A stretch of DNA of 64,000 bases, taken from the NCBI GenBank assembly GCA_943789375.1, contig CALSTX010000011.1, forward strand, positions 1-64,000. The letters run 5' to 3'. Below the pieces are notes generated by a model that saw only the letters and a list, made by a program, of their open reading frames with translations, searched no databases and was not told where the DNA came from. Position numbers and translations under genes: made by a program. Below, in pieces: positions 3 to 37,040 of the stretch (its first letter is position 1; each line of letters starts with the position of its first letter). The stretch is from an uncultured Opitutales bacterium. Its GTDB lineage: Bacteria > Verrucomicrobiota > Verrucomicrobiia > Opitutales > Seribacteraceae.

Positions 3-965
3 TTATCTGTTTCCAAAGGTACTGTTTGGCATGTTGGAGCAGAGTATAGCACTTTTGACGAGAACGATACTGAAACTTTCTTTTTTACGAAAGTAGAAAT
101 TGATGCTGATTTGAGCACTGAGGATTCAAAGTCTGATCTAGCGCTTGTTTTAGAAACACCAGATTTTGAGTTACCAGATGGATCAAGCATTACCTTTGAT
201 CCTACAGTTGATTTCGTGACCAAGCTTCCAGATGGTACTGAACTTACAATTCCTGGAGGTGCAGCCAATGTTGCTTCCGATGTAACCTCTGTTCGTCTTG
301 TTGTGACTCCAACAGCCAAGGGCTTATCAAAAAGCTCTACCGAAAAACCTTCCAATTATGGATATTCGGTCGATCTGTTTGACAGTACGGGTAAGACAGT
401 TGAAGGTAATTTCAAGAAAGATGTCATCCTAAAGGTAAAAGTTGATGTTAACGCTTCACGAGCCAATGGTTTAGATGTCGAAAATATGGAAGGTATGTAT
501 TATTCCACGACTAAGGATGCATGGGATAAAGCAAAAACCAGTACATGGGATTTGAACAGTTCGACTCTAACCATGACCACGGATCACTTCACTACTTTTG
601 CGACAGTATCAACCCCAGATATTTCAGATATTGCGGAAGGTCTTGCCAAAGTAGATGCATCTGCTTCAGGAGACTGGTACTCATCAAATTGGTTCGGTTA
701 TTTCTATGACGTCTCCAACGATTGGATATACCACAGTACGCTTGGATGGCTTTACGTGAAAAAAGATTCCAATGATAATTTTTGGTTTTATGATGCAAAT
801 ATCGGTTGGTTTTGGACCGGATCCACTTACTATGACGAGTCGCAATCTAAATCCTTTATTTATTCTTCATCTGAATCTAGTTGGTTGTATTTTCAAGTCG
901 TTGATGGTGAAAGAAAGTTTTACGATTACGGAGACCTGACATGGCTATCCCCTGATTCAAACTAG
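3..965 (+). CDS. Surface protein with Trp/Tyr-rich C-terminal domain (5' end outside window)
   Basis: The reading frame is open from the left edge of the window, so the N-terminus is missing; a TTG at 111 is not needed as a start. The first two thirds is a beta-rich extracellular type of sequence, with LPDGTELTIPGGA and, near nt 560-605, a TLTMTTDHFTTFA segment like those closing ZU5-like or post-Ig modules of bacterial adhesins. From about nt 670 it ends in a roughly 95-residue domain very rich in Trp, Tyr and Phe (SNWFGYFYD, DWIYHSTLGWLYV, NIGWFWTGS, SSWLYF, YDYGDLTW). The same type of ending occurs on three other intact secreted proteins in this window, so a shared cell-surface role is inferred. 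Exact function unknown. Confidence 0.75.
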   Translation, partial: LSVSKGTVWHVGAEYSTFDENDTETFFFTKVEIDADLSTEDSKSDLALVLETPDFELPDGSSITFDPTVDFVTKLPDGTELTIPGGAANVASDVTSVRLVVTPTAKGLSKSSTEKPSNYGYSVDLFDSTGKTVEGNFKKDVILKVKVDVNASRANGLDVENMEGMYYSTTKDAWDKAKTSTWDLNSSTLTMTTDHFTTFATVSTPDISDIAEGLAKVDASASGDWYSSNWFGYFYDVSNDWIYHSTLGWLYVKKDSNDNFWFYDANIGWFWTGSTYYDESQSKSFIYSSSESSWLYFQVVDGERKFYDYGDLTWLSPDSN

Positions 966-1029
966 TTGTTACTTATTCAAATTTTATTTACTTGCTAATC
1001 CTATTACAATTTCTACTTTTCTAATAACT

Positions 1030-2182
1030 ATGAAAATTAAGTTCCTTCTACCCTTTTACTAATGTTTAACATTGTAAACGCTCAAGTTCCATCCTCCTGG
1101 GATTCTACTGCCACCTACACTTCAGGTGCTCTTGTTCTGGATGCAAGTGGTGTTACTTACATTGCTCAACAAGATGTTTCAACCCCTGAAACAGCATTAA
1201 CGGATACTACCTACTGGAAGTCACTAGACGCTGCTGCACCCACCACCACTCCAACCGGAGCTCCAACTACTACCCCTGATACTTCGACGGTTCCAAGCAC
1301 GGCTCCCGATACAAATACTACGGCACCATCAACGAGCAGGTTGATTAATTTGTCGACTCGAGCATATGTAGGTCCCAAGGATCAGTTTCAAGAAATGGTT
1401 GGAGGATTTGGTATTACTGGAACTGGTTCGGTGAAATTATTTATTCGTGGATATGGACCCCACCTTGCACAATTCTTTGGAGAAGGAGCACTTAGTGATC
1501 CTATGGTCACTATCAAGACATTTCCTGGTGGAGAAGAGGTACTTGTGAATACACAGTGGAATGCTTCAGATTCTGAGTGGTCTGAAATAGCTGATGAATA
1601 TCAACCTTCCACTGCGGGTGACTGTGGAGCATTTATAACTTTGCAACCAGGTCTATATACGACAGAAGTCGTCGGTGAGAATGGAGCAAATGGAATTGGC
1701 ATGATCGAAATTTTCACCTATGATGATCTTACTGCAAAGAGTGGAGGGACTGTAGGTAATGGAAGTGCATCACTAAGTAAGTTGATGAATCTTTCGACCC
1801 GTAGCTATGTTGGTCCCAAGGATCAGTTCCAAGAGATGGTTGGAGGTTTTGGTGTCAGCGGTACAGACCCATTAAAGCTATTTGTTAGAAGCTATGGTCC
1901 ACACCTTGCACAATTCTTTGGAGATGCGGCACTTAGTGATCCTATGGTCACTATTAAGACATTTCAGGAGGAGAAGTCTCCCTTGAAAATGATAATTGGA
2001 GTGCATCAGATGCGGAATGGAGTGAAATTTCTGACGAGTATAAGCCGTCAACTGCAGGAGATTCCGCTGCATTTATAACGGTGCAGCCTGGTCTCTTTAC
2101 TAGCGAAGTCTTAGGAGTCAACAGTGCAACCGGTTTAGGTATGATTGAAATCTTTACCTATGACGAAATGAATAAAAAATAA
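1030..2182 (+). pseudogene. Secreted CBM5/12-like protein with two tandem surface modules, frameshifted
   Basis: After a likely signal start at ATG 1030 (MKIKFLLPF, which itself shifts frame at about 1060), the frame from 1062 encodes a short chitin-binding-like module (PSSWDSTATYTSGALV, YIAQQDV, TYWKSLD), a Thr/Pro linker, then two copies of a module common in Verrucomicrobia surface proteins: LSTRAYVGPKDQFQEMVGGF, LFIRGYGPHLAQFFG, DPMVTIKTF, PGLYTTEVVGENGANGIG. The second copy is broken at about 1964-1966, where ATTTCAGG replaces the ATTTCCAGG of the inverted copy at 8043. The correct frame then continues to the TAA at 2182. The gene shares nt 1311-2201 almost exactly with the opposite-strand gene at 7808-8698. 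Whether it is dead or a sequencing indel cannot be settled here. Confidence 0.75.
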
Positions 2183-2201
2183 TGCTTCTATTTTAGGCCA
2201 T
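1311..2201 (+). repeat. Inverted repeat arm A (891 bp)
   Basis: This stretch is repeated in inverse orientation at 7808-8698. By eye the arms differ at a C missing here near 1965, a G missing in the other arm near 8246-8250 (this arm has GG at 1761-1762), and one substitution in the GPKD/GLKD codon. Identity begins at ACAAATACTACGG and stops abruptly after TTTTAGGCCAT. The arm itself contains two diverged tandem copies of the surface module, offset by about 440 bp. No transposase or short terminal repeats are seen at its ends. Confidence 0.9.
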
Positions 2202-2260
2202 CCACGGAATTAGTCGTTGCCATTTTTATTTATTATTTTTTAGATCAAGACATTTATTGT

Positions 2261-3106: not shown

Positions 3107-4707
3107 CTAGTAAGAGAAGTTTTCTAATACCCGAGTCAAATTTGGATTATAGTTAGGATCTTTTATATATATTTTCTTCCACTTAGATTTCATATACTTA
3201 ACTGCATTCTCTTCATCGATAATTTGTTTTTTACTTGTAGGTTTTCCTCGTGTTACAGATTCGTGATGTATTGCTGTTACAGGTTCGTATAGTATTTTGT
3301 ATTTTCTCTGTCCGACTCTTAAACATAGATCGACATCGTTATAAGAAGTTGGGAGGTTAACTGCATCAAAACCATTAACTGCCATAAAAACCTCACTTTT
3401 AATAAGCATGCAAGCGGCAGTCACAGCAGTATAATTTTGCTTCAGGTTAATCCTTGCGCCCATAACTGGTTCATTTTCTCTCAGATGCCTATATGCATGC
3501 CCCGCAAAATCACCAATTCCTAAAACAACACCAGCATGTTGCACTTTTCTATTTGGATACAGAAGTTTACAACCTACGATACCAATGTCATTTTGTTGAA
3601 TTGATCCAACCATCTTAGTCAACCAATCTGGTTGAATCATTTCAGTATCATCATTGAGGAAAAGATACAATTCGGAGTCATTCCTGTCTACACTTAGGTT
3701 ATTGATTGCTGAATGGTTAAATGACTTATCATAGTTTTGGATTTGAATATTATCATTGTTCTCAAGAGAATCTAAATAATTCAAAGTTTCTGGTTCATCA
3801 GATGAATTATTTACTATGATTATTTTATAATTTTGATAATCAGTATTAAGAAAAATGCTTTCTATACATCTCTTAAGAATAAAATAATTATTCTTTGTAG
3901 GAATAATTATTGTGACAAGGGGTCTAGGGATCGGAAGTTGTTGACTTACATAAAAATAACATTCTTCAACAACCTCTACATGGGCATCAATATTCTCTCT
4001 ACAACAAAAGTCATTCAATGCTTTGAGGCTAGATTTAATTACATTAGGTTTAGCAGATACATTTGATGCGGTAGAATTTTCGTGAATTCTCCAATGATAA
4101 AGAATTTTAGGTATATGCAAAATTTGCTTATCTTTAATTTTACTAATTATGTGCAGTAAATTATCCCAATCTTGAGCACCATCACATTCGGATCGAAAGC
4201 ACCCGTGTTTATCAAATGTTTGTTTCTCAAGCACGACAAAATGACAAAGGTAGTTCTGGGATAAAAATAAGTTATAATTCCAGTCAGGTTTGAAGTATGG
4301 CTTATCCGCTTGCCATCCGGGGCTATCTTGTCTTCGTCAGAATAAATTAATTTTAAATCTTTATTACAATTGAGAGCAGCAACCACGCTCATCAAGGCAC
4401 TCGGGTTCAAGACATCATCGTGATCCAAAAAACCAATGTAATCTCCTGACGCAATGGATATTGCAGAAATCGTTGCCTTTGAAATATTACCAGTCTTTTT
4501 TCTATAAACAACTTTTATCCTAGAGTCACTATTGACATACTTTTTAAGTATTTCTTTTATAATTTTGGAATCTGAATTGTCATCCGCAATACACAATTCA
4601 AAGTTATAATATGTTTGTTTTTGAACAGATTCAATTGCCTCGACTAAAAATTCTTTAGGGGTATTGAAAACAGGCATTATTAAAGAAATAAGAGGTCGAT
4701 ACTTCAA
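3107..4707 (-). pseudogene. Tandem two-domain family 2 glycosyltransferase, frameshifted
   Basis: Two GT-A domains are encoded on the minus strand. The first starts at 4707 (LISLIMPVFNTPKEFLVEAI, GFLDHDDVL, IYSDEDK). The second starts near nt 3920 (PLVTIIIPTKNNYFILKRCI, LFLNDDTEM, GIVGCKLLYP, FDAVNLPTSYNDVDLCLR). They lie in different frames. Reading the other frame from about nt 4300 gives KPYFKPDWNYNLFLSQNYLC and then VVLEKQTFDKHG, which joins the halves exactly as in intact tandem glycosyltransferases, so one single-base indel near 4290-4310 breaks the gene. The start overlaps the stop of the upstream kinase-like gene by 4 nt, indicating one transcription unit. Likely role is O-antigen or capsule chain assembly. 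Confidence 0.8.
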
Positions 4708-6137
4708 CGTCTTTTCATTATGTTGGTCATCCAGCCGATTGTTTTTTCATGACTTCTAACCCAATTTGTGTGATGAGTTTCAGTCCTTAACAATGATCTT
4801 GAATCCAAGTATTTTCTTCTTAAGAATCTGAGTGGACTTGAAATTTTCCACGAAAAAGAATTTTTCATTCTTAATATTTTGTCAGTCTTTAAATCAATCT
4901 CGAATTTAAGTGAAGAAACAATGGATTTTTCTTTGTCCAATAACTTTTGTAACCGGAGATTATGGTCACAAATCTTTTGATGTTTTGATATTATTGTAAT
5001 GTTTTGCTCATTAATTCTTTTGCATTTAACTCCAATTTGTACTAATTCGCTGTTCGTTTTTTTATGAGCTTCTTCAAGTTGTTTAAATTGTTCCTCAATT
5101 ATTTCTTTTTCATTACAGAGTTTCTGGTACGATTTATTGAAATTTGAATTACTTTCGAGAAGATCGATTTTGGATTCATGTAGTTGATTTTTGAGTAATT
5201 TAAAATTTGATAGTACCCCGTTTATTGTCAGGTTCCCGACCTTTGGCGAATGATAGGCTATCTTGAGAGATTTAATCAGATCATGTTGCAGATAATTAAG
5301 ATAGGATTTACCAAAATGGATATTCTTATTGAGGTATGTTTGGCGGAGATAAAAATATAATGAGATTATGGATGGAATTTCTTTAAATATTTTTTGGAAA
5401 CACTTTAGTTCAGCAAAGGCGGTTTTGGAAAAATTGGCAAGCCTGACCCAGTCCTCGTTATGAAAATGCGTTTGGTGTGCAAACTCACAATCTATAATCC
5501 TGAAACTCATTTCAGGATTTACTAATATATTTTTTGCGGCCAAATCGCCAGAGGACCATCTAATAGTAGGACTGATCCCTTTGATTTCATCCTCAAAATA
5601 AGGAAGAATTTCATTTTCTAATAAATAGCGATCTGTTTTACGAATCAAAACTGTTCTCAGTAATTTTCTTATAAAATCTGTGAAATTCATCTCGCAATAA
5701 TTGGTGCGTCGATTCTTTTTCAAGAGAAGCTAATAAATCTTTTATTTTTTTAACTAAAAAGCTGATTTTCTTTTCACTGATTTTCGTTCTTAAGGGTAAT
5801 TCGTCTATTGGACTTCAGCAAAATATTCTTGTCCAAATAAATGATATTTACCTTTAGTGGTTAAAAAAAGCGGTTTGCAAGTGAACTCAGGCAAAGCTTC
5901 ATTAAACGATTTAGTTTTTTCAAATACATTCTTTAGATCGGAACCGCATGTAAGATGAATCGTTTCAGAGTTGTTTAAAACTAAACGATAGCATCTTTTA
6001 CGAACAAAATCATTTTTATTGAGTGGTTTAATTTCATTTATCTCACTTATACTTGATTTATCGAAAGTTTTAGGGAGCAAGTGTTTAATATCATTTGATT
6101 TAAAACTAGGCATTCCATCTATGATTTTAATGTTCAT
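4704..6137 (-). pseudogene. Kinase-like (APH-fold) protein with coiled coil and NSFSWKISSPLR tail, frameshifted
   Basis: The 3' part contains an aminoglycoside-phosphotransferase-like catalytic stretch, SSGDLAAKNILVNPE followed by FRIIDCEFA (Brenner-type GDL...N and IIDxE). A long coiled coil follows at about nt 4880-5180, then the tail MKNSFSWKISSPLRFLRRK. That tail resembles the NSxSWRxTxPLR ending typical of O-antigen cluster glycosyltransferases and methyltransferases. The 5' part (from ATG 6137, MNIKIIDGMPSFKSND) stops at 5805, but another frame continues directly (SPIDELPLRTKISEKKISFL ... LLASLEKESTHQLLRDEF), and a further shift near 5645 joins the catalytic part. At least two frameshifts are therefore inferred. 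Probably modifies a glycan such as by phosphorylation; substrate unknown. Confidence 0.6.
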
Positions 6138-6165
6138 CTGAATTTACAATCAAGGAACTGTATAG

Positions 6166-7450
6166 TTATCCCTTTGCGATCGATATGGTACTTTCACAAT
6201 TTGAAATTCCAAAAAAATACCCTTCGTTCAAAACTTCAAATTTTAGGCACTCCCTCAATCTATGCACTATTTTCAAATTTATTCCTTCATAGTATGTAAA
6301 TCCAAGAGAAATGAAGTATTTACCACTTCCCAAATTAGCATCCAGTGTGAATTTAACTTTTAAAGTTTCTGCAGTTGATAGATGTGGAGTTTTGAACTTT
6401 TAAGAATTTAGTATTTGTGCCGTAAATTTCTTGACCATAACAATCTCTGATACGGATAGCAAAAATTGGTTCTTCGATTTCTTGATATGAAATTGCTTTA
6501 AAGGAAACAGAGAATTTTTCTCCACTACGGATTATTTGATTTTCACTGTTATTGAATCGTATTGCTTTTATGGCACCTATTTCTCCACCATATGAGATTG
6601 GTTCAATCTCATCTGTCGATTTAACGACTGAGTTTTCTATCTGATTCATTTTAGTTTTTTTACCTTTACTCAGTTTCTTTTCGTGTTGGTTTTCGGCAAT
6701 CAACTTTGAGTAGTGATTGATTATGTTGACTGTTTTTCCAGATTTTAAAACCTGTCCTTTGTGTAACAAAATTGATTCTTCACATAACCTAGCAATACTA
6801 TTTAAGTCGTGTGAAACTAACAATAGCGAACCGCCTTTTTTTTTGAATTTTTCGAGAAATGCGAAGCATTTTAATTGAAATCTTGCATCGCCTACCACCA
6901 GTGCTTCATCAATTATCAAAACATCTGCTTCAACATGTGCAGTTACAGCAAAAGCAAGTCTGAGTGTCATTCCGGTGGAATATGCTTTTACAGGTTGAGA
7001 AATAAAGTCTCCAATATTAGCAAAATCTATTATACTGCTGAGTTTAAAATCAATTTCTTCTTTCTTTAATCCATGCAAATATGCAGTTAAGTAGATATTC
7101 TCAATGCCAGTGAATTCAGGATTAAATCCAGAACCAAGTTCAAGTAAAGCGGTTACTTTTCCATTCAATTTAATCGAGCCCTTACTGGGTTGCATAGTAT
7201 TTGAAATAATTTGGAGCAGAGTGGTTTTTCCTGCACCATTTAATCCAATTATTCCGCAGGATTTTCCTCTTTTCAAACTAAAGGTGACTTCGCTTAAAGC
7301 ACAAAAGCTTTTGGTCTCTGGATTGAGCTTCTTTTTTGGAAACAGAGTGCTAATCAAGGTTCGTAAACCAAGATTTCTTAGGTCTTCATTTTTGATTATA
7401 GTATCGAATATCTTAGTGACCTTGTCAGCGATGATTATTGCGTCATGCAT
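6166..7450 (-). pseudogene. Wzt-like ABC transporter ATP-binding protein, C-terminal domain frameshifted
   Basis: The nucleotide-binding domain is complete: Walker A GLNGAGKTT at residues 69-77, signature YSTGMTLRLAF from 157, Walker B VLIIDEAL near 177-184, and H-loop SHD at 213-215. The length and the Pro/Glu-rich linker followed by a beta-sandwich (YGGEIGAIKAIRF, GEKFSVSFKA) match Wzt, the ATPase that exports O-antigen and recognises its terminus. The open frame ends early at 6353, but the next frame continues (AETLKVKFTLDANLGSGKYF, LGFTYYEGIN) to a TAA at 6166-6168, so a single indel near 6375-6395 cuts the carbohydrate-binding domain. No Wzm-type permease gene is present in the window, so the exporter is incomplete here. 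Confidence 0.8.
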
Positions 7451-7807
7451 TCAGAATAAAATTCTTTTATGAAAAGTAATATGGATTTATGCGTGATTCG
7501 AAAAGTATTCGAACGCAAATATGCATACCTATAAAAAGAAAATCTTAGTTTCTAACAACAGTATTATTTCACGACATTTAATTTCTACTTTTTTTCAAAG
7601 TGGATCAGTTCACTATTCTATCTAGTACCAATGAATTTACATCAGATACTATTTAGACTTTTAATATTTCAAATTGTCTCAGAACAGGGATACGCTAAAT
7701 AAACTATTCAAGATAAATACATGAAATGAAGTCTAAAGATTAAACAACCACGCAGAAGGTGACTTTTTCCGTGGTTAATCGTATTCTACAATGTATCGTG
7801 AATGATA
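7451..7807. other. Intergenic region, no gene seen
   Basis: About 357 bp of AT-rich DNA between the start of the Wzt-like gene and inverted repeat arm B. No credible coding frame is present. A small stem, AACCACG at 7746-7752 paired with CGTGGTT at 7770-7776, could be a weak terminator for the minus-strand gene ending at 7827, but it has no good T tract. The promoter of the minus-strand LPS genes is expected in this region; no convincing -35/-10 pair was identified. Confidence 0.5.
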
Positions 7808-10241: not shown

Positions 10242-10336
10242 GATATGATGATTAAATGTAAACCTAAGTTATATTGGTAAAAAATTTTTTTTTATCACAG
10301 AAAATGTAACATTTGCGCAACTTGGCGTGATTTGTC

Positions 10337-13328: not shown

Positions 13329-13343
13329 GAGACTCGAGTTACA

Positions 13344-14759: not shown

Positions 14760-14766
14760 AATCTAT

Positions 14767-15424: not shown

Positions 15425-15432
15425 ACGAAAAA

Positions 15433-15849: not shown

Positions 15850-15855
15850 AATAAA

Positions 15856-16488: not shown

Positions 16489-16535
16489 CAGTTCAGTAAG
16501 AGAGAATGGTGGTGGGCTTTAAATAAAAAGAACAA

Positions 16536-18015: not shown

Positions 18016-18035
18016 TAGATTATAAAAGGGGCTGA

Positions 18036-18815: not shown

Positions 18816-19035
18816 ATTGCAAGAATTTGATTTTAAAAAACTGCATTTTTCATTCTCATCAATGCCCTGAAACAAGGGGATTGTTCCTTTTGTGACTTCG
18901 TAACATTGCGCTTTCTGTTGCATAGTCTGGCGCAAAGCTGCTTTGTCGGTATGATACTTAATTTCTTGGTTTTGCTGAAGAGAAAATTCTTAATCAAGTT
19001 GTCAAAATGCTGTGATTGTGTGCAATGAGAGTGGG

Positions 19036-27128: not shown

Positions 27129-27356
27129 TCCACCAAACTTGAGGAGGAATATGCCCCACTTGCCGCAAAAATTGCGGTCCCTCATGTAAAGGGCTGGCAC
27201 TATAAAGCCGAGCAAGGATGGTTGTATGTGGAAGTCGGGTCCTATCCCTATGTGTTCTCAGAAAGGCTTGATGCCTGGATGTATTACAAACAGGGAAGTC
27301 ACTCACCCTGGGAATACTTTAACTACAATACCCAGTCCTGGGTTGCCTGGAGATAA
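27129..27356 (+). pseudogene. Orphan 3' end of a surface protein gene
   Basis: A 75-codon fragment starting directly after an in-frame TAG with no start codon. It encodes the end of a coiled coil (TKLEEEYAPLAAKIAVPHV) and the complete Trp/Tyr-rich domain (KGWHYKAEQGWLYVEVGSYP, LDAWMYYKQGSHSPWEYF, NTQSWVAWR). It is about 98% identical to the end of the gene at 35928-37040. A partial duplicate or deletion scar, not an expressed gene. Confidence 0.85.
27132..27356 (+). repeat. 225-bp direct repeat, copy 1
   Basis: Direct repeat of 36816-37040; by eye only five substitutions. The two copies bracket 9.5 kb holding the TpsB/TpsA/FecR locus and the surface protein genes. Confidence 0.92.
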
Positions 27357-27446
27357 ACTGAAAATAATTGTTTGAATGATCTAAGAAATTAGCCAATAAA
27401 CATAAGGCTTTAGATTTCATTACAAAACTAAATTTTTTATAGAGGT

Positions 27447-29183
27447 TTGAACCATACCAAAAATTTCTTAGCTGTAAGCTTATACTTCCTTTTATCGGGG
27501 TTTGTTTTCGCTACCTATCCAGTTTCCCGAGTCTACTACGAGTATGGTTCATCAAGCGAGGACCTTCCATCCCTCAGCCCATTAAATGAGGCAAGTGTAC
27601 AACTCCGAGAAGACCCAGAAGAAATTGGACTTGATAGTCTGATTCGGGGTGCTTCCTTAATTTTAGAATTATCCCATAAAGATCTCTTTAAATTGTCTGA
27701 GGTCCCTTTACATTTTCTTAAGTCCAAAGGCTTTGCAGGTATGGTTGCTTTTCCGGATCCCAATGATATCGACCCGGTTAGTGGAAAAGACCTCCGTCCG
27801 TCCGGAGACACCGCCTTGGTGATTAAAATTTGGGTCTCTCGTTTGGACTCAGTCGCAGTGCAAGCAACTGGATTAAATGATCGCGAAGAAAAGCGAATCA
27901 CCGAGGCCGTGACTCAATTTATAGAGAAGGAAGAAGCCCAAGGTAAGCCAGTGACCAAAAGTATACTCTCCCGCCTGAAGGCTTATGGCACCCACGCTTC
28001 CCGCTCTTCCAGGGTTTTACTCTCTGCAACTGATGATCAACCCGGCATGGTAAAAGCAGTGATGAAAGTTAAAGAAAGAGAAGATCGTCCGAATTTCCTT
28101 TTGTCTGCCTCCAATGCGGGCAGTGAATCAACCGGCGAATGGTTGTTTTCAGGTTCCTACATGAATGACCAATTGACGGGAATAGATGATGCCCTCACCC
28201 TTTCTTACATCTCATCAAATACGGGAGAAAGGCAGGGAGTGAATGCGAATTATTACATTCCACTGCTTGCCCCAGAGGTCGTATCCTTGGGCGTGGGTGT
28301 TGGTTACTCCACTTATGACGCCTCCACTTTTGCCCACACCTTGATCGACTTTGAGGGAGATTCAGTCTTTGCTGATTTGTCCATCCTTCTCAAGCCTTTG
28401 TCCTGGAGAAATGAATCGGCAATGGTTTCATTAGAAAGTGGTTTAAATTTCGAGAATGTCTCTGCTTTCAATTCAATTTCTGGCTCTGCCCGCTTTACCA
28501 CCTTAACTCCAAGGCTTGTTTTATCAGTTGATTCAAAAGGTGAAAACCGGCTGGGTAAAACAAGTCTTACCCTCAAAGGTAACCTGAGCTCAATTGATGA
28601 CGCGGATCAGTTGGCCATGGGTGGGGATAATACCACGGATACCTATTCCCGTTTCATCTTTCAACATCTTGAAAACTGGAAAATTGGGCGAATATTTGCT
28701 GCCGGGAGAGAAGGGGAAACCCCATACCTCGACCGCCACCTTATGTCACTTCGCTTCGAAGCAAGTTGGGCACTAAGTTCCCGCAGGCATCTTCCCCAGC
28801 ACCAATTCATTACCGGCGGGTCCTCTTCAGTTCGTGGATATCCTGAGTCGCTGGTAGCCGGTGATTCTGGTTATCTTTTTTCCCTGGAATACCGGATCCC
28901 CTACCTGTTGATTAGTGGTGATTCCGATGAGCAACAACTGGCCTGGTCATTGGTTCCTTTTTTGGATATTGGTGCCACCAAAGTAAACGATGCCCGTTTT
29001 TATGAATCGAGCTATAACCTTTTCGGTATGGGCTTGGGTCTTGAGTTTCAACTTCCCTACGGCGCTTATGCCCGGATTGACTTCGCGAAACCTTTAAAGG
29101 AATTGAGCCGTATGGGTACCCCGGTCGATGGAACGGAGGGGGGAGATTATCGAGTCCATGGAAATCTTAGCTGGAAATTTTAG
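27447..29183 (+). CDS. TpsB/ShlB-type outer membrane secretion pore
   Basis: 578 residues, intact. A hydrophobic signal (FLAVSLYFLLSGFVFA) follows the TTG at 27447; no upstream ATG exists in frame after the TAA at 27429, so TTG is the best start. The N-terminal third is a periplasmic region and residues from about 230 form a beta-barrel. The ShlB/FhaC-type motif is TGGSSSVRGYPES near residues 453-465; the last residues LSWKF end with Phe. Such proteins export a partner TpsA across the outer membrane, and the next gene encodes a TpsA-like protein. The POTRA region is not obvious by eye. Confidence 0.82.
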   Translation: MNHTKNFLAVSLYFLLSGFVFATYPVSRVYYEYGSSSEDLPSLSPLNEASVQLREDPEEIGLDSLIRGASLILELSHKDLFKLSEVPLHFLKSKGFAGMVAFPDPNDIDPVSGKDLRPSGDTALVIKIWVSRLDSVAVQATGLNDREEKRITEAVTQFIEKEEAQGKPVTKSILSRLKAYGTHASRSSRVLLSATDDQPGMVKAVMKVKEREDRPNFLLSASNAGSESTGEWLFSGSYMNDQLTGIDDALTLSYISSNTGERQGVNANYYIPLLAPEVVSLGVGVGYSTYDASTFAHTLIDFEGDSVFADLSILLKPLSWRNESAMVSLESGLNFENVSAFNSISGSARFTTLTPRLVLSVDSKGENRLGKTSLTLKGNLSSIDDADQLAMGGDNTTDTYSRFIFQHLENWKIGRIFAAGREGETPYLDRHLMSLRFEASWALSSRRHLPQHQFITGGSSSVRGYPESLVAGDSGYLFSLEYRIPYLLISGDSDEQQLAWSLVPFLDIGATKVNDARFYESSYNLFGMGLGLEFQLPYGAYARIDFAKPLKELSRMGTPVDGTEGGDYRVHGNLSWKF

Positions 29184-29184
29184 A

Positions 29185-31320
29185 ATGCATATGAAGCACG
29201 CAACTTACGCTATTGTCCTTCTGCTCACTCAGGTTGTTTTGAAAGTATGGGGACTCCCTGAAGGCACAACACCAGTCGCAGGAGGAGGGACCACGAGCTT
29301 GAATGAAAAAGAAATGGTCATCACCGCCCCGGATGGCAGTATTTTTGAACATCAAAGTTTTAATGTGGCTGAGGATGAAACGGTTCGCTTTGTGCAACCC
29401 TCCGAGCAGTCACGAGTTTTAAACCGGGTGACCGGTGCTTCGGTATCCAGTATAAACGGAAATATTCTGGCCAATGGGCAGGTCTATCTGGTCAACCCAT
29501 CGGGGATTATTTTTGGAGCCGGAGCCGTGGTCGAGGCTGCTAGGTTGCATGCAATTTCCGGGGTTTTATCCAATGATGATTTTACTCAAGCAGTGGATAA
29601 CTTTAGCCATTTATCAGGGAGTGTTGAAAATGAAGGGCTTCTCACTGCCGATCAGGTCATTATGGCCGGTTCTTCGGTTTCCAATCAAGGGTCCATCAAT
29701 GCAGCCCAGGGAGAAGTGGTGATGGGAGCTGGGGGGAGTATGATTGCGTCCAGTGCAGATGGTTTTCTATCGGTTTCGGTTTCTCCGCACTCCACCGCTC
29801 CCATTGGAGTGGCCACCGACCTGGTGGGGCAGGCCTTATTGAACTCAGGTATCATCAAGGCAAAAGAAACTCAGTTGCTTGGTAATCAAATTACCCATTC
29901 AGGTACCATTGAATCCGAAAATGTGGTGTTTGGGGATTTTTCAGTGGTCAATGCCCAGCAAGGGAGCATCACGGCAGACAAGGTTTCTTTGCTGGGGGGG
30001 GTGGATGAGCTCACAACCCTTGGTACAGAGAAAAATGCCGGCAGCGCCTACCTGGATTCTCCCAGTAATGCGATCTCTCAAGCTCAGTCTCACCGGTAAT
30101 CTTTATGAAGTATCGATGCGTTCCAAGGTGCCCACAACCCTTGCAGTTGAAGGAGAAAACCGTTCTCGGGGATCTCCGTTTTTGCAACATGGAGATTTTC
30201 GGGTCACTGGGGGTGACCTTTCCGCACAGGTTAGTTTTTCTCCGGTGTTTTCCGGAAGTGGCACCCTGGTTCTGGCAACGGATCAAAACCTCTATCACAG
30301 TACATCGCTTACAGACCTCGCCTCCACCTACCAGGTGTTGCTGATGGGGAATAACTTGGAATCAAGTGAAATTTCCAACCTCAATAATCAGCTGAATAAT
30401 TTACGATATGAATACACATCCTATAATAATAATTATAACGATCCTAACTCTAATCTTTACGACCCAACCTACATCTCCAATCTTTCCACCCAGATTACCA
30501 AGCTGGAAAGTGCTCTCAATAACCTGTATGCCTTGGATGCAACATCCTTAGCAGCTTGAGGAGGTGTCCATTCCTCTGGGTGCATCCGCTATTCAGAAAC
30601 TTGCCCTGGAAAACCCCCAATCCTCAGCTTTTTCGCTCTCTGGTAAGCAGGCTTTCACTCTGTCCCAGGCTGCACAGGTAAGCGCTGAAGTGGTGGAAAC
30701 CCCTGGGTTAACCACCCCCACTGCGGAGATTCCCTCTTCCATTCCGGACGGTGGTTCCTCTTCTGGCCTGTCACCAGCCCTGTCAGCCAGACACCGAATG
30801 CCTTACCTTATACGCAAGCAATGGAAGGAACCGATCGATTAACGGCCGAGCAAATTACTTTGGCGGTGGAAAATGGTCTTTTTTCCGGTCACTCCTATTA
30901 TCTCTCGCAAGCACCTCTTTCTGACAGTGAACTTGTCCTCGAAGCCATCTCCGAAGCAGGTGGGGCCACTGCTCTTTTCGGGGGAGTTATGCAGTGGTTG
31001 ACTCGGCTGCCCCCTCCTCAAGCAGTACCGCAACGGAAACTGACAGCAGTGGGACATCCTCCGAATCGGATAGTGCTGGGGATACTGCAGACGACTCTTC
31101 AGGCTCCGGAGATGATTCCTCCGAGAGTGACAGTTCCTCCTCTGCTCCAGGTGCCAGCCCGGGGAATGTGCCTGCCTCAGTCTTAGCCCGCAGGGCATTG
31201 GGTGCGGTACCGTTTGCCCCAATCAGTGCACCCATTCTCTCTCCCGCAGCTTCCCTTCTTCTCGATGAAGCTCTCAGTCCCCAGGTGGAGGCTAAACTGC
31301 AAAATTATATCGACCGATGA
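29185..31320 (+). pseudogene. TpsA-like filamentous haemagglutinin-type exoprotein, multiply frameshifted
   Basis: Starts 1 bp after the TpsB stop (ATG 29185 or 29191) with a signal peptide and a classical TPS domain (ITAPDGSIFEHQSFNV, LNRVTGASVSSINGNILANG, VYLVNPSGIIFGAGAVVEAA, SNQGSINAAQGEVVMGAGGS). The frame breaks near 30070. Later frames give SSLTLTGNLYEVSMRSKVPT, DFRVTGGDLSAQVSFSPVFS, a coiled stretch with NNLRYEYTSYNNNYND, then LTAEQITLAVENGLFSGHSY and a Ser/Asp-rich tract (GDSSESDSSSS-like, nt 31060-31150), ending PVEAKLQNYIDR-like at 31320. Four frameshifts (about 30070, 30555, 30810 and 30985) separate the pieces. Export partner of the intact TpsB. Confidence 0.8.
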
Positions 31321-32121
31321 AAACATTTTTTTGGATGATTTTATTTTTAGGCTCTCACTTATTGGTTTGGGGACAGCCATCTCGGGCCCAAAAAGTCTTG
31401 GATATGGAAAACCGTCTCCAAAAATTGGAAGAAACTTTATCCCGCTTACGCGGGGGGGAACCACCCCAGGCAGCCCCCACTCTCACCTCCGCTGCCAACC
31501 ATTCCTCCGAGCGTCCCAAATACAGAATCCTCCGCTGGCCTTCTCCCATCGGTTGATACACCTGGTGCCTCAAAGGAGCAGGCGAGTGCCCCTGCCTTTT
31601 CTCCACCGTCCAGCAGGATTCAAGCTGATCTTTCCCAAAGCCCCTACCCATTGGTGGAAGAACTTGCGGGGGAAGTAAGTCGTTACCAACAGGATTCCCA
31701 GTCCTTTATTCCCGTGCTTCCGGGGTATGAGATAAAAGAGCCGACTCTTTTGGTGGTGGCTGCAGATTCTGAGTTGATATTGTCTTTCCCGGGTCGTGTA
31801 GCTGCTCGGGTGGCGGAGAATTCCCGCCTGGTTGTGGGACCCGCGGTGGATGGCCGCTATGAAGTGGATTTGCGGAGCGGTACACTATCCGCCTTGCTTG
31901 ACCCAGATCGCGACTTATCCCAGGACCCATCTTTTGCGGTGCGTACACTCTCCGGTGTGACCGAAGCTGTCGGCACTTACTATGCAGTTACCGAATACAA
32001 AGGACAAAGCTACACCTCGGTCAAAAAAGGGAAGGTTCAGAAAAAAACCACCCCCCCGTCTAAACCTGATTTTTCCGCTTATTTGAAAAAGAAAAAACCA
32101 ACTGCATCCTCCAAGAATTAA
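31317..32121 (+). pseudogene. FecR-domain protein, one frameshift
   Basis: Starts at ATG 31317, overlapping the TpsA stop by 4 nt, with a signal sequence (FFWMILFLGSHLLVWGQP) and a short coiled coil (LDMENRLQKLEETLSRLRGG). The frame shifts between about 31470 and 31550, after which VDTPGASKEQASAPAFSPPS leads into the FecR-like domain (FAVRTLSGVTEAVGTYYAVT, SYTSVKKGKVQKK). FecR-type beta domains of this kind occur in periplasmic or surface proteins; the link to a TpsA/TpsB pair suggests a role in surface assembly. A single indel; otherwise well preserved. Confidence 0.75.
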
Positions 32122-32131: not shown

Positions 32132-32923
32132 ATGAAATTATCTCGATCTCTCCGACCCAACCCTTTTTTCGTAGTTTTTTTACTTAGTTTCTTTTTTTTG
32201 GCTCCCTTCACAGCCAATGGAGAGGTAACAACTTACACGCTTTCCCTTTCTCCTTCTACAGAAGCTGGGGGTGGGGTGACCGGGGGTGGGGCATATGCAT
32301 CTGAATCCAACCAAACCATCATTGCCACAGCCAACCCTGGTTATCTATTTAGTGCCTGGTCGGGAGATGTTAATTCTGTCAAGGCAAGCCTGGTGGTGAC
32401 AATGACTGATGACCTTGAGATCAACGCAACCTTTGTTCCTGATCGTAATGATGATGATGGGGATGGGTTAAGTAATTACACCGAGATTGTTCTGCTTGAT
32501 ACCAACGCCACAAATTCTGACACCGATGGGGATGGTTTTAGCGATTACGATGAAAATCAAACCCAGGGGCTTGATCCTTTGGTTGAAAACTCCGATTTGT
32601 ACTCCTATGCTACAGGCCGGGAGCAAACGGCCCGGCTTGCAGGAAAAGCGGAGGCACAGGCAGAGCTTGCCGAGGGCGGACTTTCCAGCCTGAGCTATTT
32701 CCAAAATGTGGACCTGGGGCAGCCTTACACATCCCAATGGTTTTACCAACCGGGCATGGGGTGGCTATGGACAAGCAAAGAAAGCTTTCCTTTCATTTAC
32801 CGGGCAGCGGATAATGAGACTGGCGTAAGTGCGGGCTGGTTATACCTCAGCCAGACGGAAGATCAAACCAAGGTCTCGCTCTATGATTACGGAACTGAAA
32901 CCTGGCTATTCCAGGATTTCTAG
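32132..32923 (+). CDS. Secreted protein: InlB-type repeat, calcium-binding TSP3-like repeats, Trp/Tyr-rich end
   Basis: 263 residues, intact. A signal peptide (FFVVFLLSFFFLAPFTANGE), then one Listeria/Bacteroides-type B repeat (residues 34-105: ATANPGYLFSAWSGD, VTMTDDLEINATFV). Two TSP3-like calcium loops follow (DRNDDDGDGLSNYTE, NSDTDGDGFSDYDE), then a short helical linker rich in Ala/Glu, and the Trp/Tyr-rich domain (QWFYQPGMGWLWTSKESFPF, AGWLYLSQTED, YDYGTETWLFQ). It follows the FecR gene by 10 bp and so belongs to the TPS-like operon. Probably a surface-attached component. Confidence 0.75.
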   Translation: MKLSRSLRPNPFFVVFLLSFFFLAPFTANGEVTTYTLSLSPSTEAGGGVTGGGAYASESNQTIIATANPGYLFSAWSGDVNSVKASLVVTMTDDLEINATFVPDRNDDDGDGLSNYTEIVLLDTNATNSDTDGDGFSDYDENQTQGLDPLVENSDLYSYATGREQTARLAGKAEAQAELAEGGLSSLSYFQNVDLGQPYTSQWFYQPGMGWLWTSKESFPFIYRAADNETGVSAGWLYLSQTEDQTKVSLYDYGTETWLFQDF

Positions 32924-33015: not shown

Positions 33016-33033
33016 GTTTAATATATAAATATT

Positions 33034-33284: not shown

Positions 33285-35876
33285 ATGAAAGTACCCGCAC
33301 CTAATTTTTTATCTTTTCATAACATACACGAATTTATCTACAAGATTTCGAAAAAAAGTCTGTTGTTGTTTGTGACTCATATTCTTATTCTGAATTTTTC
33401 CATAGCTTCCACTCAACAAAATGGATACACGCCGGGCAAGGCATCCAGCTCAGAATTAAGTCTTGAACTTGAAGAGAGAAAGAGAATTGATTTTGCCTCA
33501 TCTTTTTCTGGTTTCACATTGGATCAGGATAATTTAGCAACCTGGCATGAAACTGGAAATGGGGAGGTGAAACTTTGGGATATATCAACTGACGGGGTAA
33601 CTCAGAACCGGGCTACAATTAGAAGTCCTCATCGGGCTTACGATAGACCTACTTTCGGTTGCTCACTTGTTATGGATGGAGATTTTATAGGAATCGGATC
33701 TTATTACACATGGCGGAATAATCCGCATGATGGTCGTTTTTATGTTTATAATCTAAAAAATAATCAAAAAGTCAGTGAGTTTAACCCCAGTCCTAGAAGT
33801 GCCCAGTATTTTGGGATGCATGCCAGCAGAAGTGGTGACGTGGTTTGCGTAACCCAAGGTGGTGCAACTCATGCCAGCTGGCGTGTACCCGCATCTGTTA
33901 CTTTTTATGCTAGGGACCATTTTAATCTCAGACAAATTAAACATTTTGAACATCCTGGTTCTGGGAGTCATGCTGGGGTGGTTGAATCAAAGGGAGATTA
34001 TTTTGCATCTTATGTTTACGCGCCTCTTGATCGTCATTACAAATATTTTTTGTATCTCTGGAAGGTGCAAAGAGGTAATGATGGTTCGGTTATCGATGTG
34101 AATATTGTGGATTCCATTTCAACCAATGATTTAAATACCAATCCGATAAGAGGATCGATGTCCTTCGGCGAAAAAATGCTCTATGTAGGAAATGTTAAAA
34201 GTAATCCATCTGATGCATTTGTTGCTATGTATAAAATCAATGAGAAAGACCAGCTCGTGTATGCAGGGGAGATGAAACCTCAACTTAGTTCAGGCGAAAA
34301 AAGTTTTGGACATAGCGTTCAGGTAGTTGATGATTATCTCTTTGTGGGAGCACCTGAAGCCAAGACCGCAACTTCCGGCTCAGGTAAATTATTTACATTT
34401 AAAGTTAAACCTACGGGTGAATATCAGCAGATTAATGAATTTTCCCCAGATACTCTTAAACAAGGGGAGACTTTTGGGAAAAAGATTGAGGTAAGCTCTG
34501 ATACAATGGTTGTAAGTGCAAGTAGTAAAGTAATTTACACTTACGAGTTAAAAAAAATCGAACAACCATTGTCACCTGTTGATTTAAATGAAGGACTTCT
34601 TGCCCATTTTCCGTTTGATGGGAACGCTCAAGATTATTCCGGAAATCATTTACATGGTCAAGTTTACGGGGCAAAATTGACGAAGGATCGATTTGGTGTA
34701 GAAAATAAAGCGTACCAATTCGACGGAGTTGACGACTATATTAAAGTCAACCACCATCAATCCTTGATTCAACTACCCTTAAGTTTGAGTTTGTGGCTGA
34801 ATTCTGAAGGTAATCAAAAAGAGTCAGGGATCATTAGTAAATACCATGCAACCGCATGGAATGGTTGGCAGCTTATGGAGTTCGATGGTCAGCTTGTCCC
34901 ATGGTATTTACGAAGTTACAGTCCTAAAAATGTAATTATTGGAAAGTATGGGGAGTCTAAAAATTTTGAAACAAGTTTTACTCAAAATACTTGGAACCAT
35001 GTAGTATGTGTTTTTAGTAAGTCTGGTGGTGAGATTTATCTCAATAATAACTTGGCGGATAGCAAAGCCTGGACTGGGCAGCCCAGTGCTCCAACCTCAC
35101 AATATCCTCTATATTTTGGTAAATACAGTGGGGTTTCGAATGGGTTTTTCCAAGGAAAAATTGACGATGTACGCATTTACAACCGTGCCTTAACTGAAGT
35201 TGAAATAGTAAGCCTATTTGAAACTGATTTTTCTGGTCGTGGAGCGCCGGATATGCCGGAGCCTGGAGAAGTGCCCGGAGGATTGGTAAATTACATATTG
35301 TTACTTGGTGAAGTGAATGGAAAAGTTCAAAAGGCGGAAAAAGAGCTAGCGGAGCTTATGAAGCAAGGGGAGGGTAAAGCACAAAAGATCCGGGATTTGG
35401 AAGTGGAGTTATCGAGATTGAACCAGGAGCTTGGCCGAGTGGAAGGGGAGCTCAAGAGTTGTGAAGAGGAAGGAGACCGCACGCGTGAGCAGATCAAGGA
35501 AGTGGAGAGACTGACACTTTCCCGCGAGCTTGAAATCATTGGGCTGGAAGGGCAGGTGGATGGAGTGCAGGCCCGTTTGGATGCCACCCATTGTGAGCAT
35601 TTAAAAGTCGGGGAAAGGTTGGAGTTTTTAAAGGAGGAGATGTCCGGATACGCGGATAAGCTTAAAACAGCCCATACCCCGGGTTGGCACTATGTACCCG
35701 GTTACGGATGGTTGTGGACTTCACCCGAGCACTACCCTCAAGTGTACTCCAACGCCCGAAATGGGTGGTTGTATTACGAGCCTGGAACCTCTGAGCCCTG
35801 GTTATACTACGACTACACGCTGGAGCAATGGGAAGAGTGGTTTGTGGATCCAGCCCTTTTTTCGCTCAATAATTAG
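33285..35876 (+). CDS. Large surface protein: propeller-like repeats, LamG domain, coiled coil, Trp/Tyr-rich end
   Basis: 863 residues, intact. A signal segment near residues 24-44 (KKSLLLFVTHILILNFSIAS) comes after an extended N-terminus. Residues 60-430 hold FG-GAP-like propeller repeats (FGCSLVMDGDFIGIGSYY, FGHSVQVVDDYLFVGAPEAK, FGKKIEVSSDTMVVSAS). Residues 435-645 form a LamG/concanavalin-like domain (LLAHFPFDGNAQDYSGN, AYQFDGVDDYIKVNH, NTWNHVVCVFSKSGGEIYLN, GKIDDVRIYNRALTEVEI). Residues 668-795 are a coiled coil, and 800-855 the Trp/Tyr-rich domain (GWHYVPGYGWLWTSPEHYPQ, NGWLYYEPGTSEPWLYYDY). A stalk-plus-head adhesin or glycan-binding architecture is inferred. Confidence 0.8.
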   Translation: MKVPAPNFLSFHNIHEFIYKISKKSLLLFVTHILILNFSIASTQQNGYTPGKASSSELSLELEERKRIDFASSFSGFTLDQDNLATWHETGNGEVKLWDISTDGVTQNRATIRSPHRAYDRPTFGCSLVMDGDFIGIGSYYTWRNNPHDGRFYVYNLKNNQKVSEFNPSPRSAQYFGMHASRSGDVVCVTQGGATHASWRVPASVTFYARDHFNLRQIKHFEHPGSGSHAGVVESKGDYFASYVYAPLDRHYKYFLYLWKVQRGNDGSVIDVNIVDSISTNDLNTNPIRGSMSFGEKMLYVGNVKSNPSDAFVAMYKINEKDQLVYAGEMKPQLSSGEKSFGHSVQVVDDYLFVGAPEAKTATSGSGKLFTFKVKPTGEYQQINEFSPDTLKQGETFGKKIEVSSDTMVVSASSKVIYTYELKKIEQPLSPVDLNEGLLAHFPFDGNAQDYSGNHLHGQVYGAKLTKDRFGVENKAYQFDGVDDYIKVNHHQSLIQLPLSLSLWLNSEGNQKESGIISKYHATAWNGWQLMEFDGQLVPWYLRSYSPKNVIIGKYGESKNFETSFTQNTWNHVVCVFSKSGGEIYLNNNLADSKAWTGQPSAPTSQYPLYFGKYSGVSNGFFQGKIDDVRIYNRALTEVEIVSLFETDFSGRGAPDMPEPGEVPGGLVNYILLLGEVNGKVQKAEKELAELMKQGEGKAQKIRDLEVELSRLNQELGRVEGELKSCEEEGDRTREQIKEVERLTLSRELEIIGLEGQVDGVQARLDATHCEHLKVGERLEFLKEEMSGYADKLKTAHTPGWHYVPGYGWLWTSPEHYPQVYSNARNGWLYYEPGTSEPWLYYDYTLEQWEEWFVDPALFSLNN

Positions 35877-35927
35877 TGTAAATACAGAAGTAAGTAAAAA
35901 GTATAAAATTTAACAAAAAGAATTACT

Positions 35928-37040
35928 ATGAAAAATATAATCAAAGATCGCCACAACTCCGTTATCGACTTGGCCAAAAGAGTTTTGGTGAAGGGATTTA
36001 CCTACAGTCTGCTTGTCTCCGCAAGTCTCTGTACAGTGATCACGTCAAGTGCTCAAGTTCCGACGAGTTGGTCGAACCTCCAGCCATATAAATCTGGATC
36101 TTTGGTGCTTAACCAAAAGGGAAATACCTTTATAGCCCAACAAGATGTATCTTCAGGTATTGCATTATCGAACACCTCTTATTGGGCATCATTAGACGAA
36201 GCGGCCCCAACTTCTGTGCCAGGCGGGGCACCTTTTACGACCCCAGATACAAGTACGGTGCCTTTAAACACCCCGCTTGACCAAGGAGTTGGCTCTGCTC
36301 AGAAGCAGGCAGATCATGGCTCTGTGACTAAAATGCATCTTGGAGACACGGAGGTTGTGGTTGCATCGTCCACTCAAGACACATCTCTGTCCCATGCGTG
36401 CTGTGGGGGAGAGGATTTGCACAAAGAGGAACAGGACCGAGCCGGACCCCGTCCGGGTAACCCGGGCGGTTCCGGCTATGTGGATTATAAACTGGAGTGG
36501 GAAAAAGTAACTGTCCGGCTTGGGGTTCTGGAAGATGAAATTAAGAAAGAATTAGATAAGCAGGCAGAGCAGGATGTAAAAATCATCACCTTGGGCGAAG
36601 AAATAGCAAATCGGATGGCAGAGATCAGTAAGACAGAAGAAGATTTAGCCAAGTGCCAGACCATGGGAGCGAAGTTACTTGCCGGGTTGTCTTCGAAGCA
36701 GAAAGTCCTTGGGGGGTTGGATAACAATATTGCCCAGTTGGTTGCCAAGAGGCAAAACCTGGAGAATGAGATCCTCGAATGTAATCAGGAACTTGCTGAA
36801 TTATCCTCGGAATATACCAAGCTTGAGGAGGAATATGCCCCCCTTGCCGCAAAAATTGCGGTCCCTCATGTAAAGGGCTGGCACTATGAAGCCGAGCAAG
36901 GATGGTTGTATGTGGAAGTCGGGTCCTATCCCTATGTGTTCTCAGAAAGACTTGATGCCTGGATGTATTACAAACAGGGAAGTCACTCACCCTGGGAATA
37001 CTTTAACTACAATACCCAGTCCTGGGTTGCCTGGAGGTAA
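35928..37040 (+). CDS. Secreted CBM5/12-like protein with coiled coil and Trp/Tyr-rich end
   Basis: 370 residues, intact. Signal region at 20-42 (GFTYSLLVSASLCTVITSSA), then a chitin-binding-like module at 43-92 (QVPTSWSNLQPYKSGSLVLN, FIAQQDVSS, TSYWASLDEAAP). The module is very close to the N-terminus of the frameshifted gene at 1062. A Pro/Thr linker, a coiled coil at about 185-308 and the Trp/Tyr-rich domain at 314-369 (GWHYEAEQGWLYVEVGSYPY, AWMYYKQGSHSPWEYFNYN) follow. The last 225 bp are duplicated at 27132-27356. Likely binds an insoluble glycan at the cell surface. Confidence 0.78.
   Translation: MKNIIKDRHNSVIDLAKRVLVKGFTYSLLVSASLCTVITSSAQVPTSWSNLQPYKSGSLVLNQKGNTFIAQQDVSSGIALSNTSYWASLDEAAPTSVPGGAPFTTPDTSTVPLNTPLDQGVGSAQKQADHGSVTKMHLGDTEVVVASSTQDTSLSHACCGGEDLHKEEQDRAGPRPGNPGGSGYVDYKLEWEKVTVRLGVLEDEIKKELDKQAEQDVKIITLGEEIANRMAEISKTEEDLAKCQTMGAKLLAGLSSKQKVLGGLDNNIAQLVAKRQNLENEILECNQELAELSSEYTKLEEEYAPLAAKIAVPHVKGWHYEAEQGWLYVEVGSYPYVFSERLDAWMYYKQGSHSPWEYFNYNTQSWVAWR
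36816..37040 (+). repeat. 225-bp direct repeat, copy 2
   Basis: Intact gene 3' end that is copied at 27132-27356 (five differences by eye). Recombination between the copies would delete the 9.5 kb TPS/surface block or make a tandem duplication of it. Confidence 0.92.

What the first reader, a model, noticed from the sequence alone, without database searches (positions are those of the whole stretch)
672..37040. A recurring Trp/Tyr-rich C-terminal domain on unrelated secreted proteins
The same type of ending (GW.YxPGxGWLWTSxExxPxxY, then GWLYxxxxT and YDYxxxxW) closes the proteins at 3-965, 32132-32923, 33285-35876 and 35928-37040. It also survives as fragments at 27129-27356 and 40164-40349. 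The N-terminal parts differ completely (InlB repeat, propeller plus LamG, CBM, Ig-like). A shared C-terminal end on different secreted heads is the layout of a sorting or wall/outer-membrane attachment signal, like those of T9SS or PEP-CTERM, but without their motifs. No described name is known to me.
Basis: partly seen in the sequence, partly recalled or inferred. Interest (0 to 1): 0.75.

Follow-up and report, generated by a model that had tools for sequence, protein, structure and literature searches.

The report
Tryptophan-rich surface-anchoring domain of Opitutales
Many bacteria of the order Opitutales attach the same small tryptophan-rich folded domain to one end of dozens of otherwise unrelated exported proteins, probably to hold them on the cell surface, and the family libraries checked here do not describe it.

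Summary
Four window proteins end in a Trp/Tyr-rich domain; two fragments exist. The full domain is about 95 residues; three window copies are a short form of about 60. No Pfam or NCBIfam family covers it. AlphaFold2 predicts an all-beta meander (pLDDT 89.8); Foldseek finds no solved fold at E<=0.001. The window's genome has 41 matches; a single-contig genome of another family in the order has 60. It occurs in 79 of 273 genomes of the order; of 387 sampled across the phylum 9 have it, 2 outside the order. Heads are diverse exported proteins. The C-terminal sorting-signal reading is only partly right: in the single-contig genome 46 of 59 proteins carry it at the C-terminus, 11 right behind the signal peptide, 2 elsewhere. 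No C-terminal copy tested has a hydrophobic tail. It therefore looks like a portable terminal retention module, probably binding a constant surface ligand. In two proteins it directly follows a choice-of-anchor domain. Ligand and location are inferred. Against a clean picture: exosortase is somewhat commoner in genomes with the domain (67 of 79 versus 135 of 194). I rate it an undescribed domain family, a new variant of a known kind.

The parts
3..965 (+). 3' part of a domain-bearing protein cut by the contig start; full-length domain at about 657-962
   Evidence: 319 of 320 residues equal to the tail of a 2879-aa frame on contig C1
657..962 (+). full-length Trp-rich domain (long form), predicted beta meander
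   Evidence: model of 669-962, pLDDT 89.8, pTM 0.78
27129..27356 (+). headless fragment with the short-form domain; partial duplicate of the end of the gene at 35928-37040
   Evidence: 27132-27364 is 97.0% identical to 36816-37048
27447..29183 (+). context: two-partner secretion pore (TpsB, ShlB/FhaC family)
   Evidence: PF03865 E 1.6e-15; PF01103 E 3.5e-11
29128..30099 (+). context: TPS-domain secreted protein; its likely continuation up to about 31650 lies in other frames
   Evidence: PF05860 E 1.6e-23
31651..32121 (+). context: FecR-domain protein
   Evidence: PF04773 E 3.4e-07
32132..32923 (+). domain protein: signal peptide, InlB repeat, TSP3, short-form domain (about 32714-32917)
   Evidence: model of the short form
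33285..35876 (+). domain protein: FG-GAP, LamG, coiled coil, short-form domain (about 35667-35843)
35928..37040 (+). domain protein: unassigned head, coiled coil, short-form domain (about 36861-37034)
40164..40361 (+). decayed short-form domain remnant with 3 stops, upstream of the antiporter gene where relatives have a domain gene
40474..41040 (+). context: Na+/H+ antiporter subunit MnhE, syntenic marker

Best explanation
It is a portable terminal surface-retention domain. Proteins leave the cytoplasm by an ordinary signal peptide (Sec; one has a Tat-like motif) and carry one copy of a ~95-residue aromatic beta-meander at one end of the mature chain, usually the C-terminus, sometimes directly behind the signal peptide. 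The folded domain then binds, non-covalently and through its Trp/Tyr pairs, a constant component of the cell's own envelope (most likely a surface glycan), so that dozens of different adhesin-like proteins, enzymes and repeat proteins stay on the cell. Shown: existence, copy number, diversity of heads, terminal position at either end, signal-peptide enrichment, absence of a hydrophobic tail. Predicted: the fold. Inferred: retention, non-covalent binding, glycan ligand.
For: Single-contig genome G116: 59 proteins, 46 with the domain within 30 residues of the C-terminus, 11 with it starting at residue 33-61 of the frame behind the signal peptide, 2 elsewhere, one copy each. SP-like start in 56 of 59 versus 28 of 62 control ORFs (49 versus 20 at the strictest threshold). 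No hydrophobic 10-mer in the last 40 residues in any of 46 and of 109 C-terminal copies, so the tail cannot be a membrane anchor. Heads: cadherin, Ig, LamG, InlB, TSP3, LRR, FG-GAP, S8 and trypsin-like proteases, multicopper oxidase, MauG, PPIase, phosphatases. No glycoside hydrolase, polysaccharide lyase or sulfatase among the 25 families shown in each of the lists 57, 58, 106. Two proteins have choice-of-anchor M over its cut-off (65.2 and 81.5 bits, cut-off 55) with the domain directly behind it; one of 45 proteins matches choice-of-anchor I at 2.2e-144 (which protein, and where the domain lies in it, was not traced). W-x-Y/W pairs on successive predicted strands.
Against: No binding or localisation data exist. 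C-terminal copies outnumber N-terminal ones 46 to 11, which an anchor indifferent to position would not require; in the window's own genome internal copies were seen but none directly behind a signal peptide. The N-terminal copies need 6 moves on the best tree, but well-supported branches force only 1. No match to a known glycan-binding family. One head has a sub-threshold match to a glycosylhydrolase family (L296, 42 bits, cut-off 175), and 12, 13 and 22 head families were not shown. Exosortase is somewhat commoner in genomes with the domain (67 of 79 versus 135 of 194), which a sorting role could explain. The meaning of 'choice-of-anchor' is recalled; a plasmid search for relatives of one such head found nothing.
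Confidence: 0.5

Rival explanations
1. A C-terminal export and sorting signal recognised by a dedicated machine and perhaps cleaved, working like the T9SS CTD; N-terminal and internal copies would be secondary uses.
For: 134 of 149 instances end within 30 residues of the C-terminus, 46 of 59 in a single-contig genome; many copies per genome on diverse heads; choice-of-anchor heads; exosortase in 67 of 79 genomes with the domain versus 135 of 194 without.
Against: 11 of 59 proteins carry it directly behind the signal peptide; internal copies with more than 300 residues behind them in several genomes; no T9SS-type family match; exosortase is also in most genomes without the domain, and 12 of 79 with it have no hit.
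Confidence: 0.2
2. A glycan-binding module aimed at external substrates such as algal polysaccharides, as a CBM of degradative enzymes.
For: Aromatic-rich beta module on exported proteins; LamG and other lectin-like heads; one sub-threshold glycosylhydrolase match.
Against: No glycoside hydrolase, polysaccharide lyase or sulfatase among the 25 families shown in each of three head lists (12, 13 and 22 further families were not shown); heads such as PPIase, multicopper oxidase, MauG and cadherins do not need substrate targeting.
Confidence: 0.12
3. A protein-protein docking module that binds a proline-rich or other peptide on a scaffold, like OCRE, WW or dockerin modules.
For: Weak resemblance to OCRE (7 of 78 members, best E 0.005) and WW (3 of 78, best 0.0018); the OCRE domain is an aromatic-rich beta-sheet that binds poly-proline (PMC5127646, passages); the short form gives weak Foldseek hits to single WW domains (E above 4).
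Against: The hits are weak and may only reflect Trp/Tyr content; no PDB fold match at E<=0.001; no scaffold gene was identified.
Confidence: 0.13
4. A folding or stability cap without ligand, spread by duplication of secreted repeat proteins.
For: Terminal position at either end; many heads are long repeat proteins.
Against: Also on enzymes; the conserved Trp pairs exceed what a cap needs (inference).
Confidence: 0.05

Closest known systems
T9SS C-terminal domain (features recalled)
   Same: High-copy, all-beta, mostly C-terminal domain on diverse signal-peptide proteins.
   Different: No Pfam or NCBIfam match; also placed directly behind the signal peptide; SprA search of the window's genome empty, but its control also rang nowhere.
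PEP-CTERM, GlyGly-CTERM, MYXO-CTERM and LPXTG tags (features recalled)
   Same: C-terminal tags on many unrelated exported proteins; one exosortase hit in the window's genome.
   Different: A folded ~95-aa domain; no hydrophobic stretch in 46 and 109 C-terminal tails; only a loose association with exosortase.
Choline-binding and other aromatic hairpin repeat anchors (features recalled)
   Same: Aromatic beta-hairpin units at either end of exported proteins; proposed non-covalent retention.
   Different: No match to any such Pfam family at E<=1 in 78 members; one short domain per protein rather than repeat arrays.
OCRE domain (PF17780)
   Same: Imperfect aromatic repeats forming one antiparallel sheet; weak hits in 7 of 78 members.
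   Different: Weak match only; the described one is in a human splicing factor (PMC5127646, passages); no fold match found.
DUF6600 (PF20245)
   Same: Local W-x-Y/W..GW-x-W motif; weak hits in 5 of 78 members.
   Different: hhalign probability 9%, 17 columns, E 0.0036; no match in the window's genome.

Membership tests
T9SS C-terminal domain | Matches the family profile (NCBIfam/Pfam libraries) | tested here: not met
   No such family among hits at E<=1 of the window proteins (for one protein 25 of 26 Pfam families are shown) or of the 78 domain rows
T9SS C-terminal domain | Located at the extreme C-terminus only (recalled) | tested here: not met
   46 of 59 C-terminal, 11 of 59 behind the signal peptide, 2 of 59 elsewhere
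T9SS C-terminal domain | Genome encodes the SprA translocon | tested here: inconclusive
   no match in the window's genome, but none of 14 control genomes rang either
PEP-CTERM and other hydrophobic C-terminal tags | Hydrophobic transmembrane stretch near the C-terminus | tested here: not met
   0 of 46 and 0 of 109
PEP-CTERM | Co-occurs with exosortase | tested here: inconclusive
   67 of 79 genomes with the domain have PF09721 versus 135 of 194 without (Fisher p 0.0096, uncorrected for kinship and completeness); 12 of 79 lack a hit, several being incomplete
PEP-CTERM | PEP-CTERM motif proteins in the window's genome | tested here: inconclusive
   none, but no control genome rang
Choline-binding / cell-wall-binding repeats | Matches the family profiles | tested here: not met
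   not among the ten families hit at E<=1 in 78 members
Choline-binding / cell-wall-binding repeats | Non-covalent binding to an envelope component | not testable with these tools
   Needs a binding assay
OCRE domain | Profile match over the curated cut-off | tested here: inconclusive
   7 of 78 members, best E 0.005; cut-offs and bits are not printed for alignment scans
OCRE domain | OCRE fold | tested here: inconclusive
   no PDB match at E<=0.001; of 396 and 102 matches at E<=10 only 50 each were shown, and I recognised no OCRE entry
DUF6600 | Full-length profile homology | tested here: not met
   17 aligned columns, probability 9% (DUF6600 side built from 7 sequences)
Choice-of-anchor architecture (meaning recalled) | A choice-of-anchor domain followed by an anchoring or sorting element | tested here: inconclusive
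   choice_anch_M at 121-288 and 53-245, over cut-off, in two proteins whose Trp-rich domain is at 299-390 and 259-340. The first half is met; that the following domain anchors or sorts is the inference

The most novel reading that the evidence does not exclude
Opitutales own an undescribed surface-attachment system: one aromatic beta-meander module, with a fold not matched in the PDB, that docks dozens of exported proteins to one common envelope ligand and works from either end of the mature protein, alongside or instead of sortase-, exosortase- and T9SS-type tags.
Probability: 0.35. Interest if true: 0.78.

Novelty: new variant of a known kind. Interest (0 to 1): 0.6.

Why it matters
The place of most exported proteins of these Verrucomicrobiota is unknown. 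A domain present up to 60 times in one genome would, if it is an anchor, define much of their surface proteome from sequence alone, give a handle to display or purify proteins on these cells, and point to its ligand as a key envelope component. It also adds a case in which the slot behind a choice-of-anchor domain is filled by something the family libraries do not list.

Tried and rejected
Obligate C-terminal sorting signal: rejected as the main reading because of N-terminal and internal copies. Membrane or sortase-type tail: rejected, no hydrophobic tail. T9SS and PEP-CTERM searches in the window's genome: empty, but their controls rang nowhere, so inconclusive. DUF6600 and OCRE kinship: local or weak resemblance only. 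Two-partner secretion as the general partner: the TpsB/TPS/FecR cluster is syntenic with the short-form gene in three relatives, but long-form genes are scattered over the genome. Plasmids and phages: no match with the window's long copy. Literature: nine searches, of which I saw listings only, named no such domain in the rows listed; one search listed 15 of 11,857 papers; only open-licence papers are held, so absence from print is not shown. Passages were read in PMC5127646, PMC10434189 and PMC11982257. PDB sequence search: best E 0.19. VIA-align was not available.

Limits: rows of A5 come from a scan with the pattern [DGN]W[ILM]YHxx[LH]GW, so conservation of those columns is partly selected; A3 was not so selected and keeps six invariant W. 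The 80 GTDB loci are the best of 136 confirmed. The signal-peptide score is a home-made hydropathy rule, not SignalP; its controls include spurious ORFs. In the mixed data it gave 48 of 71 versus 167 of 429. Frames are stop to stop, so residue numbers count from the preceding stop, not from a proven start. In G116, 60 matches gave 64 frame rows in 60 regions; 5 rows cut by a region end (second views of other rows) were dropped, and one weak match (L337, E 1.3e-4) missed the script's threshold, leaving 59. One ORF seen in two views (L046, L175) carries two copies.
Full report
OBSERVATION. Six copies share six invariant residues, W, G, W, W, Y, W. A long-form profile (A3, 27 rows, none of the short window copies in it, though its rows had been found with a profile that held them) recovers the short copies of the window at E 2.4e-10 to 1.6e-8. 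The domain has a long form of about 95 residues and a short form of about 60 that equals its second part. The window holds one long copy, three short copies on intact ORFs, and two fragments.

EXTENT. The window's genome (2.73 Mb, 27 contigs) has 41 matches at E<=0.01. In the order, 79 of 273 genomes and 30 of 88 genera have a match at E<=0.001. A sample of the class gave 8 of 384 genomes, all 8 from the same order; a sample of the phylum 9 of 387, 2 of them outside the order. A scan of 84,980 species with one degenerate peptide pattern gave 158 stretches, 136 confirmed; the 80 listed are titled Opitutales, Opitutia, Opitutae, Verrucomicrobia or Verrucomicrobiota. That the order is Opitutales rests on these titles; that most are marine I infer from isolate names. 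The long window copy has no plasmid or phage match. A single-contig genome of another family of the order, G116 (5.80 Mb), has 60 matches at E<=0.001.

IDENTITY. No Pfam or NCBIfam family covers the domain in the window proteins or in 78 domain rows. The nearest Pfam hits are weak: WW (3 rows, best E 0.0018), OCRE (7 rows, 0.005), DUF6600 (5 rows, 0.031). Profile-profile comparison with DUF6600 gives 9% probability over 17 columns. The PDB sequence search gives nothing better than E 0.19.

STRUCTURE. AlphaFold2 on 78 rows: mean pLDDT 89.8, pTM 0.78, ten short strands, no helix of four or more residues. Short form: pLDDT 86.6, six strands. Foldseek: no PDB match at E<=0.001 (best 0.21; short form best 2.1), no viral one (best 0.59). 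The conserved aromatic residues come as W-x-Y or W-x-W pairs on successive strands. Residues i and i+2 of a strand point to one side, so the pairs could line up as an aromatic face; that is inference, since no coordinates were read.

POSITION. Mixed set (own genome, relatives, GTDB loci): 153 distinct instances, 149 with a 3' stop. Of these 117 end within 10 residues of the C-terminus, 17 at 11-30, 6 at 31-100, 1 at 101-300, 8 further in; four more run off the 3' end of their locus. Several internal cases are well-formed, e.g. behind a signal peptide (L173, second ORF), before cadherin-like and PPIase domains (L179), between a subtilase and InlB-like repeats (L055). G116 removes the doubt from fragmentary assemblies: 59 frames, 46 with the domain within 30 residues of the C-terminus (33 within 10), 11 with the domain starting at frame residue 33-61 behind the signal peptide, 2 elsewhere, one copy in each. 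On a tree of 89 domains the N-terminal label needs 6 changes (5-6 in bootstraps; shuffled mean 10.5), though well-supported branches alone force only 1, so repeated moves are likely but not proven.

EXPORT. With a simple hydropathy rule 56 of 59 G116 frames have a signal-peptide-like start versus 28 of 62 control ORFs of the same stretches; at the strictest threshold 49 versus 20. L289 starts with an RRDFLK motif (Tat reading recalled). None of 46 C-terminal copies in G116 and none of 109 elsewhere has a hydrophobic 10-mer in the last 40 residues.

HEADS. Own genome (31 of 37 frames scanned): cadherin 6, InlB-type repeat 5, surface Ig 5, LamG 5, TSP3 3, with single S8, trypsin and reprolysin-like peptidases. 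Other species (66 of 81 proteins, cut by the size limit): cadherin 22, TSP3 15 and others. G116 C-terminal set (45 of 46; the 5019-residue frame left out): InlB, Ig, LRR, multicopper oxidase, trypsin, MauG-type, PPIase, beta-lactamase-fold and others. G116 N-terminal set (nine of eleven scanned): DM13, DUF1800, histidine phosphatase, a sub-threshold Vgb lyase, and five without a hit; L289, also scanned, is a metallophosphoesterase. In the own genome 51 pairs of heads are similar; the script printed 666 pairs, but three heads under 30 residues had been left out, so 561 were compared. 21 of 37 own domain copies have their best match in another species, so many copies are old. Two G116 proteins have a choice-of-anchor M domain, over cut-off, directly before the Trp-rich domain; one of 45 matches choice-of-anchor I at 2.2e-144, protein not traced. 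By NCBI's naming, as I recall it, such heads carry different anchors in different bacteria; here the Trp-rich domain takes that slot.

EXOSORTASE. PF09721 is in 202 of 273 genomes of the order, including the window's. Of the 79 with the domain 67 have it, of the 194 without it 135 (Fisher p 0.0096). This is a loose association, not corrected for kinship or completeness, and speaks a little for a sorting role; but exosortase is common without the domain, and the domain has no hydrophobic tail.

MECHANISM. The best fit is a terminal retention module: export by the ordinary signal peptide, then non-covalent binding of the folded domain to a constant envelope ligand. A C-terminal-only machine does not explain the copies behind signal peptides. 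A substrate-binding CBM is not favoured, since no polysaccharide-degrading family appears among the head families shown; one sub-threshold glycosylhydrolase match exists (L296). A peptide-docking module like OCRE, which binds poly-proline through exposed tyrosines (PMC5127646, passages), is possible. Shown: position, copy number, head diversity, export signals, no hydrophobic tail. Predicted: the fold. Inferred: ligand and location.

WINDOW CONTEXT. The short-form gene 32132-32923 follows a two-partner secretion cluster (27447-32121). The same order occurs in three relatives (L230, L231, L232), and in seven of 13 regions fetched from relatives (L229-L234, L237) an antiporter gene like 40474-41040 lies just downstream of a short-form gene. 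In the window the remnant 40164-40361 occupies that place, so the region was probably rearranged.

VERDICT. The feature is real, undescribed in the libraries searched, and widespread in one order. The sorting-signal idea is right in spirit (a common tag on exported proteins) and wrong in strict form (not C-terminal only; no processing gene identified).

Noticed in passing
window 27447-32121: Two-partner secretion cluster (TpsB, TPS-domain protein, FecR). The TPS gene seems split over several frames after about 30096; decay and assembly indels cannot be told apart.
   Followed up: partly
window 1305-2201 and 7808-8704: Inverted repeat of 898 bp at 99.4% identity, each arm containing two ~400-bp copies at about 74% identity; one arm overlaps an ORF without Pfam hit (1062-2078).
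   Followed up: no
window 3107-21854: Genes of surface polysaccharide type: glycosyltransferase, ABC transporter with Wzt C-terminal domain, nucleotide-sugar dehydratase and nucleotidyltransferase; a candidate source of a surface glycan. Only some ORFs of this stretch were scanned.
   Followed up: no
G000 contig C1:112726 onward versus window 1-965: The window starts inside a gene whose tail is nearly identical to that of a 2879-aa frame on another contig; a repeat that may have broken the assembly.
   Followed up: partly
L312, L315 (G116): Choice-of-anchor M domain directly before the Trp-rich domain in both proteins.
   Followed up: yes
L282-L284 (G116:C1:837791-845122): Three adjacent related genes with the domain directly behind the signal peptide; the two scanned (L282, L284) have no Pfam hit.
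   Followed up: partly
L190 (G374) and L191 (G295): Copies outside the order: near the C-terminal end of an ORF with a CxxCH motif (L190) and at the end of a short ORF (L191).
   Followed up: no
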